Source: Candidatus Aminicenantota bacterium (GTDB lineage: Bacteria; Acidobacteriota; Aminicenantia; Aminicenantales; Aminicenantaceae). From it: a DNA stretch of 64,000 bases. The stretch is taken from NCBI GenBank assembly GCA_016783445.1, contig JADHWO010000005.1, positions 1 to 64,000 on the forward strand, given 5' to 3'. The position numbers were made by a program, and so were the translations under genes. This document shows positions 7,194 through 53,960 of this stretch, piece after piece. Under the pieces are notes generated by a model. It did no database searches and was not told the origin of the DNA. It saw nothing but the letters and a program-made list of their open reading frames with translations. Every line of letters begins with the position of its first letter. Within the stretch, counting starts at the first letter, position 1.

Positions 7194-7547
7194 GGTTCTC
7201 TTCCATTTTGTGTGGGTATTAATCAGTAAGTGTTCGTGAATGGTCTCGCTCCCGTTCAGATTTTTCACGCCATCCCTTCTTCATCTATTCAACGCATAAA
7301 CGAAGGGCAGTGGGTGAAAAAAACCGTTTGAAGGCTGAGTGGGCACGGTTCCTCTCCATAATGGAGAGGAGAGCGAAGCCTGAAATCGAGCAGCTTTTGA
7401 CTCGCTGGGGCAAAAGTTGCGTGTTTTCTGAATCCACTGGCCTGAGTTCAAACATACTCGCCGCCCGACTCCGTCGGGTCTCCTCGAAGCGCGATTCAGG
7501 GAGGCTAAATCTTCAAGGGTCGCTTCATCCATCCCCGAACACTTTCT
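7194..7547 (+). mobile_element. MITE-like interspersed repeat, copy A (right outer end missing or diverged)
   Basis: Shares long near-identical sequence with 13410-13734 (inverted) and 52711-52978. Inner inverted repeats AGTAAGTGTTCGTGAATGG (7225-7243) and CCATCCCCGAACACTTTCT (7529-7547); left outer TIR GGTTCTCTTCCATTTTGTGTGGG at 7194. Confidence 0.75.
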
Positions 7548-7658
7548 GATTATTTCTTCTTCTTGACTTTTTCCCTCAGATATTGCATTTTCTTATGGAA
7601 AGAATTACGTTTGCTTAAGAAAAGGAATAAAGGTTTGTTTTAAACCAGGAGTCGCCTT

Positions 7659-13289: not shown

Positions 13290-13409
13290 CCGATACTCTT
13301 CAGCGTTTAATTCCCAATTATTATAGTCTATTTCAAATTATAATCAAAACAATTCATTTTATAAAGTAAGTAACTTTTTTGCCGTGATGAAGGACTGATC
13401 AATCACATT

Positions 13410-13734
13410 ATAAGGGTATTTGGGGATGGATGAAGCGACTTTGAAGATTTAGCCTTCCTGAATCGCTATTTGAGGGAATCCGGCGTAGCCGGACACCGAG
13501 TATGTTTAAACTCAGGCCAGTGGATTCAGAAAACACGCAACTTTTGCCCCAGCGAGTCAAAAGCTGCTCGATTTCAGGCTTCGCTCTCCTCTCCATCATG
13601 AAGAGGAACCATGCCCGCTTTGCCTTCAAACGGTTTTTCTCACCCACTGCCCTTCGTTTATGCTTTGAATAGAATGATGAAGGAATGGCGTTAAAAATCT
13701 GAACGGAAGCTCAGACATTCCCAAATACCCTTAT
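13410..13734 (-). mobile_element. MITE-like interspersed repeat, copy B (inverted relative to A and C)
   Basis: Near-identical core to copy A on the opposite strand; inverted ends ATAAGGGTATTTGGGGATG (13410-13428) and CATTCCCAAATACCCTTAT (13716-13734). Confidence 0.75.
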
Positions 13735-13861
13735 TAATCCACCACGGGAAAAAAGATGCTTCATTTTCCAAACGTTAATACATAAATGGTTCCCTTTTAA
13801 GCCATTTAATCCAGAAGGATTATTATAAAATATTTCTATTGATAAAAAGTTTATCCCAATA

Positions 13862-35023: not shown

Positions 35024-35121
35024 GTAGGGGTTTGATTTATCAAACTCACCTTCTAGTCTGTAGGGGTTTGATTTATCAAACCCATCTTTCATAATTTGTA
35101 GGGGCTTGATTCATCAAGCCC
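35024..35121. repeat. Cluster of three 24-bp palindromic repeats
   Basis: GTAGGGGTTTGATTTATCAAACTC (35024-35047), GTAGGGGTTTGATTTATCAAACCC (35060-35083), GTAGGGGCTTGATTCATCAAGCCC (35098-35121). Confidence 0.9.
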
Positions 35122-38397: not shown

Positions 38398-38491
38398 ATA
38401 GGGACTTGATTGATCAAATCCGCCATCTAATTTGTAGGGGTTTGACTTATTAAACCCGTATTAATGTGCAGGGGCTTGATTTATCAATCCC
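38398..38491. repeat. Second cluster of three 24-bp palindromic repeats
   Basis: ATAGGGACTTGATTGATCAAATCC (38398-38421), GTAGGGGTTTGACTTATTAAACCC (38434-38457), GCAGGGGCTTGATTTATCAATCCC (38468-38491). Confidence 0.88.
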
Positions 38492-50647: not shown

Positions 50648-50778
50648 TATAATTTTTCCTGATGCAAGAAAAATCGTCTGAAGCCTTGTTCATACATACA
50701 AATCTGCTATAATTAAAAACCAATCATGCTTAAATTAAAAACTTTCTTAAAAGAAAAAATATATAAGAGCTTAAAAAA
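50648..50778. repeat. 131-bp perfect direct repeat, right copy (native argS promoter and start)
   Basis: Identical to 39772-39902. Confidence 0.95.
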
Positions 50779-52663
50779 ACAATATCCTATTGAGCCATCA
50801 GAGCTTGGAATAAGCTACACTCCCCAGCAAAAAATGGGCGACCTGGCCCTGACTTTTCCTTTCCAGCTGGCAAAAAAAATGAAGAGGCAACCAAGGGAAC
50901 TTGCCCTGGAAATTTTTCCACATCTTTCCTCCATTGAGGGAGTAAAAAAAGTAGAAACAGCCGGGCCAGGTTATATCAACCTCTTTCTGGACAGAGATAA
51001 ATTCTTTTCTAACCAGCTTCATTCAATCGACCAGGCTTCTCTCTCCGCTGAAGAGAAAAAAATCATTATTGAACATACTAATATCAATCCTAACAAAGCT
51101 GCACACATAGGCCACCTCAGAAATGCCTGCCTCGGAGATACTCTTGGGCGCTGTCTGAAATATAAAGGAGAGAACGTCGAAATCCAGAATTACATAGATG
51201 ACACCGGGGTTCAGGTGGCGGATGTTATTTTTGGCTTTTTGGAAATGGAGAAAAAAAGCCTATCTCAGATTAAGGAAATCAAAGAAAAATTTGATTATTA
51301 CTGCTGGGACCTTTATGCAAGCGTCTCTTCCTACCTGGAGAGCCACCCCCAGGCAGAGAAAAGAAAATCAGAAATTCTGAAAAACATCGAAGAGCGGAAA
51401 AATCCTGAATTTGAAATAGCAAATTTTATATCCCGCCAGATTATCAAGGCTCATCTCCAGACCATGCGAAGAATCGGAGTCAGTTATGACCTGCTTCCCT
51501 GCGAAAGCAGCATTCTCCATCTTAAGTTCTGGGAGAAAGCCTTCTCACTTTTAAAAGAGAAAAAAGCTATTTTCCTAGCAGAAGATGGAGTAAACAAAGG
51601 CTGCTGGGTGATGGAGCCTGAGACTGAGTCAGAAAAGGAAAAAATTATAGTCCGATCTGACGGGACTGTCACATATGTTGGAAAGGATATTGCCTATCAA
51701 CTCTGGAAATTTGGACTATTGGAAAAAGATTTCTACTATGAACCATTTCTCAAAGAAGACAGTAAAACCATCTGGATAACTTCCTCCGCATCAAAGCAAA
51801 AATCTCCCCCATTTGGAAACGGAAGCCAGGTTTATAATGTCATAGATACGAGGCAGGCTTATCTGCAGAAAATTGTCGTTCAGGGCCTCAGATCCCTGAA
51901 ATTTCTTGCCGAGGCCGAAAAATCCATCCATTTCTCTTACGAGATGGTAGGCCTTTCTCCAAAAAGCCTAAAGGAGCTTAATCTAAGTCTCTCAGAAGAA
52001 GATAAAAAAAAGAACTTCCTTGAAGTCTCAGGGAGAAAAGGTTTGGGAGTAAAAGCAGATGATCTGCTGGACAGGCTCGAAGAAAAGGCTCTTGCTGAAG
52101 TGGAAAAAAGAAATCCTCAACTCCCCTCAAAGCTGAAAAAGGAAACTGCTCATAAGATCGCCTGTGGAGCACTCCGCTACTTCATGCTCAAATTCGCCCG
52201 AAATTCCCTTATCGTTTTTGATTTTGAAGAAGCCCTTAGCTTTGAGGGAGAAACCGGCCCTTATCTCCAGTATACCCTGGTCCGGATTAACAGCATCTTC
52301 CGCAAACTTGAAGAAAGAGAAGGCTTTAAAGAAAAGGATATTCAGGCACTTCTTTCTTCAGGAGAAATTGTTTTAGATGTGCTTTCTGAATCCGAGCAAG
52401 CCGATTTCTGGGACCTTGTTCTCTCTGCATCACAGTGTGAGGAAGAAGTCCTCCACTCTATCCGCTCTCTGGAATTCTCACACCTGGCTAAATTCTCTTT
52501 TAACCTCTGCCAGAAGTTTAACGCGTACTATCATCTTTACTCAATTCTGGCAGAAAAAAATAAAGAAGTGAAAAAGATCCGCATTCTAACCATTTATTAC
52601 ATCAAAGAAGTTCTAAAGCGCGCCCTCTCTCTTATGGGAATCCCGCAACCAGAATTGATGTAA
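50726..52663 (+). CDS. argS: Arginyl-tRNA synthetase
   Basis: EHTNINPNKAAHIGHLRNACLGDTLGR (HIGH region), IQNYIDDTGVQVADV, C-terminal DALR-type helical region. Confidence 0.96.
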   Translation: MLKLKTFLKEKIYKSLKKQYPIEPSELGISYTPQQKMGDLALTFPFQLAKKMKRQPRELALEIFPHLSSIEGVKKVETAGPGYINLFLDRDKFFSNQLHSIDQASLSAEEKKIIIEHTNINPNKAAHIGHLRNACLGDTLGRCLKYKGENVEIQNYIDDTGVQVADVIFGFLEMEKKSLSQIKEIKEKFDYYCWDLYASVSSYLESHPQAEKRKSEILKNIEERKNPEFEIANFISRQIIKAHLQTMRRIGVSYDLLPCESSILHLKFWEKAFSLLKEKKAIFLAEDGVNKGCWVMEPETESEKEKIIVRSDGTVTYVGKDIAYQLWKFGLLEKDFYYEPFLKEDSKTIWITSSASKQKSPPFGNGSQVYNVIDTRQAYLQKIVVQGLRSLKFLAEAEKSIHFSYEMVGLSPKSLKELNLSLSEEDKKKNFLEVSGRKGLGVKADDLLDRLEEKALAEVEKRNPQLPSKLKKETAHKIACGALRYFMLKFARNSLIVFDFEEALSFEGETGPYLQYTLVRINSIFRKLEEREGFKEKDIQALLSSGEIVLDVLSESEQADFWDLVLSASQCEEEVLHSIRSLEFSHLAKFSFNLCQKFNAYYHLYSILAEKNKEVKKIRILTIYYIKEVLKRALSLMGIPQPELM

Positions 52664-52710
52664 AAGAGTTAGTATTAAATGAAGCAGATTACGCAGGGAT
52701 TTGATTTATT

Positions 52711-52978
52711 GGTTATCTTCCATTTTGTGCGGGTAATAAAAAGAAAGTATTCGGGGACGGTCTCGCTCCCGTTCAGATTTTTTACGCCATCCCTTCATCG
52801 CTCTTCTCGGCGGCTGCGTAACTCGCTCCGCTCAAACATACTCGCCGCCCGACTCTGTCGGATTTCCTCGAAGAGCAATTCAGGGAGGCTAAATCTTCAA
52901 AGGTCGCTTCATCCATCCCCGAACACTTTCTATTAATCTATCAAGACATGTTTTGCCCACACAAAATGGAAAAAAACC
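52711..52978 (+). mobile_element. MITE-like repeat, copy C: complete, with 23-bp outer TIRs and 8-bp target duplication
   Basis: TIRs GGTTATCTTCCATTTTGTGCGGG (52711-52733) and CCCACACAAAATGGAAAAAAACC (52956-52978), 20/23 match; flanking GATTTATT at 52703-52710 and 52979-52986. Confidence 0.85.
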
Positions 52979-53033
52979 GATTTATTAAACCCATAAGGAA
53001 TAACCTAAAAGAAAAACAGGAGGACATAAAAAA

Positions 53034-53960
53034 ATGATTGAAGTTGAACTCCTAACAAAAAAATTTGGCGATATCGAAGCGATTAAGGATTTGAGTTTTA
53101 AAGTTGAAGAAGGAAAGATATGGGGACTCCTCGGGCCAAACGCTGCTGGCAAAACAACAACCATGAGAATCCTCACTGGTTACATTCCTGCCACTGAGGG
53201 AAAAGCCTCTATAGCTGATTATGATGTTTTTGAACAGCCTAATGCAGCCAAAAAAATTACTGGTTATCTCCCTGAAGTTCTTCCCCTCTACCCCGAAATG
53301 ACAGTTTATTCCTTTTTGAACTTCGTCTCAGAAATCAAACAAATCCCCTCCTCTCAAAAAAAAGAGGCTGTTGACAAAGCCATAAAAATAAGCGGGCTGG
53401 AGTCAGTTAGAAGGAGACTCATCAAGAATATCTCAAGAGGATTCAAACAGAGGGTAGGCATTGCTCAGGCTTTAATCCATGACCCTCAAGTTCTTGTCCT
53501 GGACGAGCCAACCATCGGCCTTGACCCAGCTCAGATTATAGAAATAAGACAACTCATAAAATCCTTAAAGGGAGAACGCACAATCCTCATTTCAACTCAT
53601 ATCCTTGCTGAAGTGACTCAGACGTGTGATGGAGCTGTCATCATCAACGAAGGCATCCTAATGGCTTCAGGTTCTCTGGAAGATCTCACAGCTTCCTTCA
53701 AGAAAAAGGAAGGTGTTATCATCAAGCTCAAAAATAGCGGAAAAGATACACAATCACTCCTTCATAATATTCAGGGAGTTGATAAAGTTTTCCGGGAAGA
53801 AAATGAGTTTAAAATAGAATGGTCTAAAGGAAAAGATTTGAGGGAAAACATCACAAAGTTCACTGTGGAAAAAGAATTGGGTCTTATCGAAATGAGGCCC
53901 CTCAGCATGAACATCGAAGACCTCTATCTCAAGATTATCTCAGGAGGTGTCGAGCAATGA
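53034..53960 (+). CDS. ABC transporter ATP-binding protein (GldA-like)
   Basis: GLLGPNAAGKTTTMRILTGY, LVLDEPTIGLDPAQIIEIR, ISTHILAEVTQTCD. Confidence 0.93.
   Translation: MIEVELLTKKFGDIEAIKDLSFKVEEGKIWGLLGPNAAGKTTTMRILTGYIPATEGKASIADYDVFEQPNAAKKITGYLPEVLPLYPEMTVYSFLNFVSEIKQIPSSQKKEAVDKAIKISGLESVRRRLIKNISRGFKQRVGIAQALIHDPQVLVLDEPTIGLDPAQIIEIRQLIKSLKGERTILISTHILAEVTQTCDGAVIINEGILMASGSLEDLTASFKKKEGVIIKLKNSGKDTQSLLHNIQGVDKVFREENEFKIEWSKGKDLRENITKFTVEKELGLIEMRPLSMNIEDLYLKIISGGVEQ

What the first reader, a model, noticed from the sequence alone, without database searches (positions are those of the whole stretch)
52703..52986. MITE-like element inserted into a palindromic repeat with an 8-bp target duplication
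Element 52711-52978 has 23-bp outer inverted repeats (20/23) and is flanked by GATTTATT on both sides. Removing it and one GATTTATT restores GCAGGGATTTGATTTATTAAACCC, exactly the 24-bp palindromic repeat family found at 35.0 and 38.4 kb. This is direct evidence of transposition-style insertion and gives relative ages: the palindromic repeat was there first.
Basis: seen in the sequence. Interest (0 to 1): 0.7.

Follow-up and report, generated by a model that had tools for sequence, protein, structure and literature searches.

The report
ISL3-type MITE inside a REP palindrome
A 268-base jumping element without its own genes sits exactly in the middle of an older palindromic repeat in an uncultured bacterium; the genome still carries an intact ISL3-type insertion sequence with matching ends that probably moves it, both favour these palindromes as landing sites, and the element's interior is a shared folded module also found between the ends of unrelated small elements.

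Summary
Element 52711-52978 has 20/23 inverted ends and an exact 8-bp duplication, and removing it restores a palindromic repeat. The own genome (2.89 Mb, Candidatus Aminicenantes by inference) holds 23 copies with both ends; 12 have a perfect 8-bp duplication. An intact partner is present: a 1329-bp ISL3-family insertion sequence with perfect 23-bp ends of the same sequence, a full transposase and the same kind of target site (joined from two contigs overlapping by 139 bp). Eight of 24 insertions (nine with one decayed site) lie exactly on the axis of a GTAG-type REP palindrome that makes up about 0.1% of the genome. Four genomes of a related genus have intact REPs and no element in the same argS-ABC gap. 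New beyond it: REP targeting by an ISL3-type element (not among the families in the 2006 survey of REP-targeting IS), and a ~190-bp interior with a covarying branched fold, seen only in this bacterial order, that also occurs between two other sets of ends in this genome. An RNA role for that module is possible but unproven: a strand-neutral test was not significant.

The parts
52711..52978 (.). 268-bp MITE
   Evidence: 23 two-ended copies in own genome (14 of 266-269 bp, 9 of 391-538 bp); no transposase gene
52711..52733 (+). left terminal inverted repeat
   Evidence: 20/23 match to right end; same sequence type as the ends of the 1329-bp ISL3-family IS
52956..52978 (-). right terminal inverted repeat
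52703..52710 (.). 8-bp target duplication GATTTATT, left copy
52979..52986 (.). 8-bp target duplication GATTTATT, right copy
52693..52710 (+). left part of the interrupted GTAG-type REP palindrome (tag here GCAG)
52979..52992 (+). right part of the interrupted REP palindrome
52745..52932 (-). interior module shared with MITEs that have unrelated ends; imperfect palindrome with branched fold
52772..52907 (-). part of the module matched by covariance model R1 (163.6 bits; this copy is in the model)
35024..35121 (+). three uninterrupted REP palindromes of the same family
38398..38491 (+). three more REP palindromes of the same family
7194..7552 (+). copy with the same left end and a longer interior, right end missing
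13366..13763 (.). MITE with different ends (AAGTAACTTTTTTGCCGTGATG / AAGCATCTTTTTTCCCGTGGTG) around the same interior module
50726..52663 (+). argS (arginyl-tRNA synthetase) upstream of the insertion
   Evidence: named from the protein sequence; orthologues used for the empty-site test
53034..53960 (+). ABC-transporter ATPase gene downstream of the insertion
   Evidence: found near argS in 18 of 30 loci examined, own genome included

Best explanation
The element is a non-autonomous MITE mobilised in trans by an ISL3-family DDE transposase. The transposase recognises the 23-bp ends, inserts with an 8-bp staggered cut, and favours the symmetric AT-rich centre (GATNNATC) of the GTAG-type REP palindromes of this genome. 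Here it cut the REP between argS and an ABC-transporter gene, duplicating GATTTATT; the REP was older. Shown by sequence: the ends, the duplications, the intact partner IS, the target register and the gaps without element in relatives. Inferred: that this transposase did the moving, and that it reads the palindrome rather than only the central octamer. The MITE is not a deleted copy of the IS found; they share only about 26-30 bp at the ends. It is a pair of ISL3-type ends around a ~190-bp folded module that also occurs with other end sets.
For: 23 MITEs plus one IS: 13 of 24 with perfect 8-bp duplications, 6 more with one mismatch. Partner IS: 1329 bp, perfect 23-bp ends, duplication GATAAATC, inside a REP; transposase with Zn-ribbon, HTH and DDE domains of ISL3 and an NCBIfam ISL3 equivalog hit at 347 bits against a cut-off of 180. 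Two relatives carry complete 1328-bp elements on single contigs with 22/22 ends and exact 8-bp duplications; in one of them (G002) two of the six end copies away from the IS carry the IS's own variant base. REP targeting: eight insertions at 0-2 mismatches to the REP consensus and one decayed case, all with the duplication centred on the axis, against about 159 REPs in 2.89 Mb; binomial P for 9 of 24 is 6e-33, or 6e-24 if only a tenth of the genome is open to insertion. Four genomes of one related genus have 2-4 REPs and no element in the same gap.
Against: Transposition was not observed. The IS is joined across two contigs by a 139-bp overlap, and because the target is a repeated palindrome its matching duplication is weaker evidence of one site than usual. 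Fifteen of 24 insertions are not in REPs, so the preference is not absolute, and preference for the octamer alone plus loss of insertions from genes could explain part of it. The gaps without element are from another genus where REP number and order differ, so base-for-base orthology of the interrupted REP is not certain.
Confidence: 0.9

Rival explanations
1. REP targeting is only apparent: the transposase prefers an AT-rich symmetric octamer, and insertions in intergenic REPs survive because they are harmless.
For: Non-REP duplications are also AT-rich and loosely symmetric (GTTATAAC, AGTTAACT, ACTTTATT).
Against: Of 8 insertions with a GATNNATC-type duplication 7 are in REPs, while 4 of 15 such octamers in the window are (small numbers); all REP insertions share one register.
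Confidence: 0.3
2. The MITE is mobilised by a single-strand Y1 (IS200/RAYT-type) transposase, the kind thought to move REPs, and not by ISL3.
For: The genome has GTAG-type REPs and one Y1 transposase.
Against: Y1 transposases make no target duplication (established knowledge); here 8-bp duplications and ISL3-matching ends are found. The one Y1 gene lies beside a different hairpin.
Confidence: 0.02
3. The interior is plain MITE hairpin filler. Its compensatory changes come from template-switch correction of quasi-palindromes, and its spread between end sets from recombination between copies, without any RNA role.
For: Orientation to neighbouring genes is not that of a co-transcribed element (14 of 41 upstream and 23 of 41 downstream genes on the RNA strand). 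With a structure chosen without G-U pairs the excess of G-U over A-C is only 41:28 cells, 17 v 7 columns, p = 0.06-0.11. No Rfam match.
Against: The fold is branched, with a side hairpin (CCGAC..GTCGG); 97.9% of cells are paired and 83 cells changed on both sides against 23 in shuffles; many unpaired columns are invariant; 54 of 58 copies fold better on the same strand, though they share ancestry.
Confidence: 0.6

Closest known systems
187-nt MITE of Microcystis aeruginosa PCC 7806, likely mobilised by an ISL3-family transposase (PMC11448079)
   Same: Non-coding, stem-loop forming, 8-nt duplications, ends matching a resident ISL3-family IS
   Different: There the shared ends are 9 nt (GGCTCTTCG) and no REP targeting appears in the passages read; here the ends are 23 bp and the interior is shared with MITEs that have other ends
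Insertion sequences that target REP elements (Tobes and Pareja 2006, PMC1525189), e.g. ISRm22
   Same: Insertion at a fixed point of REP palindromes; ISRm22 inserts at the palindromy axis
   Different: Families named there are IS3, IS110, IS4, IS256 and IS5; ISL3 does not occur in the text. Here a minority of the copies are in REPs, not all
GTAG-tagged REPs (2013, PMC3733652)
   Same: 20-40 bp palindromes tagged GTAG at one end, many copies, often clustered
   Different: That survey lists Proteobacteria, Cyanobacteria, Chloroflexi and PVC bacteria for GTAG repeats; no REP-flanked RAYT gene was found here in a 90% complete assembly

Membership tests
MITE | short, non-coding, terminal inverted repeats | tested here: met
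   268 bp, 20/23 ends, no transposase gene
MITE | multiple dispersed copies with target duplications | tested here: met
   23 two-ended copies, 12 with exact 8-bp duplications, 6 with one mismatch
MITE | ends shared with an autonomous element | tested here: met
   1329-bp IS with the same 23-bp ends
ISL3 family (partner IS) | ISL3-type DDE transposase | tested here: met
   PF01610, PF13542, PF14690 and NF033550 above cut-offs
ISL3 family (partner IS) | 8-bp target duplication and ends beginning GG | tested here: met
ISL3 family (partner IS) | active transposition | not testable with these tools
   needs an assay
GTAG-type REP (the target) | short palindrome with GTAG tag in high copy | tested here: met
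   about 159 palindromes genome-wide; the tag was read only in individual copies, GTAG in most, GCAG at this one
GTAG-type REP (the target) | RAYT transposase gene flanked by the REPs | tested here: not met
   one Y1 gene only, with a different hairpin beside it; assembly 90% complete, and such genes can be missing in REP-bearing species (PMC3733652)
Known structured RNA (Rfam), for the interior | match to an Rfam model | tested here: not met
   no match to the module at E up to 1

The most novel reading that the evidence does not exclude
The interior module is a structured RNA (or single-stranded DNA) element confined to the order of Aminicenantes to which this genome belongs. It spreads by hitch-hiking between the ends of unrelated insertion sequences, so that one folded cargo is served by several transposase families.
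Probability: 0.3. Interest if true: 0.7.

Novelty: new variant of a known kind. Interest (0 to 1): 0.5.

Why it matters
It adds ISL3 to the transposase families seen to land in REP palindromes, with the partner IS, the target register and element-free gaps in relatives all in hand. The exchangeable folded interior raises a testable question about how MITEs arise: here not by deletion inside the resident IS, but with the ends of different IS around one shared module.

Tried and rejected
Internal-deletion origin of the MITE from the resident IS: rejected, they share only the outer 26-30 bp. Rfam identity for the interior: none. Presence in phage or plasmid records by blastn, or of an exact 30-base motif in viral contigs: none. 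Wider phylum: model R1 matched 6 of 199 sampled genomes, all in the own order (strict filters, so weak matches may be lost). Elements with the same ends in Auribacterota and Tritonobacter MAGs gave no match to the interior model. A partner IS for the second end set was looked for in one batch of loci: no transposase was recognised in the two loci searched for ORFs, and three others align to one of them over a 200-bp MITE; the search was not exhaustive. The G-U excess first seen (145:33 cells) was partly circular because the structure had been fitted on that strand; the strand-neutral count is weak.

Full report
Observation. It is the only place in the window with an exact 8-bp duplication bordering inverted ends of 17/23 or better at 150-500 bp; 30 shuffled windows gave none. 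The restored palindrome differs at 3-6 of 24 bases from the six copies at 35.0 and 38.4 kb: same family, not identical.

Copies. A search of the window's own assembly (2.89 Mb, 153 contigs) returned many places. In the fetched loci I found 23 copies with both ends, 14 of 266-269 bp and 9 of 391-538 bp. Counting the IS below, 13 of 24 insertions have a perfect 8-bp duplication and six more have one mismatch; the other five have two to four.

Partner. The genome has one detected ISL3-type transposase gene, at the start of contig C25. The left part of the same element is at the start of contig C19; the two overlap by 139 identical bases. Joined, they give a 1329-bp IS with perfect 23-bp ends GGTTCTCTTCCATTTTGTGTGGG, a transposase with all three ISL3 Pfam domains and an NCBIfam ISL3 equivalog match, and GATAAATC on both sides, inside a REP. 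In two relatives complete 1328-bp elements on single contigs have 22/22 ends and exact 8-bp duplications. Their ends carry one base change; in one of the two genomes (G002) two of the six end copies away from the IS carry the same change and four do not. The MITE shares only its outer 26-30 bp with the IS, so it is not a deletion derivative of the IS found.

Target. Eight of the 24 insertions match the REP consensus at 0-2 mismatches when the duplication is placed on the palindrome axis, and a ninth is a decayed case. The pattern search gave about 159 such palindromes in the genome (each is seen on both strands). With 159 axis positions in 2.89 Mb the binomial probability of nine in 24 is 6e-33, and 6e-24 if only a tenth of the genome is open to insertion. 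The remaining 15 duplications are AT-rich and many are loosely symmetric. Whether the transposase reads the palindrome or mainly the octamer is open: seven of eight insertions with a GATNNATC-type duplication are in REPs, against 4 of 15 such octamers in the window.

Order of events. I could read the gap between argS and the ABC gene in 17 relatives. In four genomes of one genus (G004, G022, G036, G248) it holds two to four REPs (consensus at up to four mismatches) and no MITE; in the 13 others no REP was found.

Organism. Records with the same ends in the named collection are mostly Candidatus Aminicenantes, with some Auribacterota and one Tritonobacter. One of them (L061, HyVt-373) shares element and flanks with relative G004 (L091), which is in the same family as the window's genome. 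The assignment to Aminicenantes is an inference from this.

Interior. The ~190-bp interior (52745-52932) is found elsewhere between other ends: in this genome between GGAAGCATCTTTTTTNCCGTGATG-type ends with 9-bp duplications (TGGTAACTT exact at one copy, others with mismatches), one of these at 13366-13763 of the window, and once between GGCACCTATACAAATT / GGCTCTTATTCCATTT ends with an exact 8-bp duplication. In relatives further candidate ends were listed that I did not verify copy by copy. A longer form of the interior occurs with both main end types in the window (7.2 and 13.4 kb). Aligned copies support a branched fold on the minus strand: 97.9% of cells paired, 83 cells changed on both sides against 23 in shuffles, and far fewer when partners are slid. 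Related sequences can beat shuffles without selection, and quasi-palindrome correction can create paired changes. The strand preference was strong in the fitted structure (145:33) but only 41:28 in a strand-neutral one (p = 0.06-0.11). I therefore treat an RNA role as possible, not shown. The covariance model found matches in 6 of 199 sampled genomes of the phylum, all in the own order.

Comparison. An ISL3-mobilised MITE is known from Microcystis. REP-targeting IS are known from IS3, IS110, IS4, IS256 and IS5. A search for papers holding both ISL3 and the REP term found three; in the two that I checked the REP term occurs only in the reference lists and is not linked to ISL3. The finding is thus a well-supported new variant of a known kind, within the limits of a library that lacks most subscription journals.

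Noticed in passing
window 13366-13763: A MITE with different ends and a candidate 9-bp duplication (two mismatches) carries the long form of the same interior module as the element in the finding.
   Followed up: partly
window 7194-7552: A copy with an intact left ISL3-type end and the long form of the interior lacks its right end.
   Followed up: partly
L160 200-399 (G000 C99), with copies in L161, L163, L165, L166: A 200-bp MITE with GGAAGCATCTTTATTTCCGTGATA-type ends and 9-bp duplication ACTAAAATG (read by eye in L160) has an interior that shares short stretches with the long form of the module; no partner IS was found.
   Followed up: partly
L149 (G000 C51:6904-7263): The only Y1 (IS200-type) transposase found lies beside a CCCCGCAGCAGAGCTGCGAGG hairpin, not beside the GTAG-type REPs, so the mobiliser of the REPs is not identified.
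   Followed up: partly
L033-L034, L037-L040, L049, L058-L059: Auribacterota and Tritonobacter MAGs carry the same ISL3-type ends; where a second end is close by the elements are about 99-270 bp and do not match the interior model, which would fit transfer of such an IS between phyla.
   Followed up: no
L129-L130, L132, L143-L144, L148 (relatives G003, G016, G027): In these copies the apical GCGNAGC loop of the module is replaced by a CCCACGGACGGG stretch that could form its own hairpin, as if one hairpin substituted for another.
   Followed up: no
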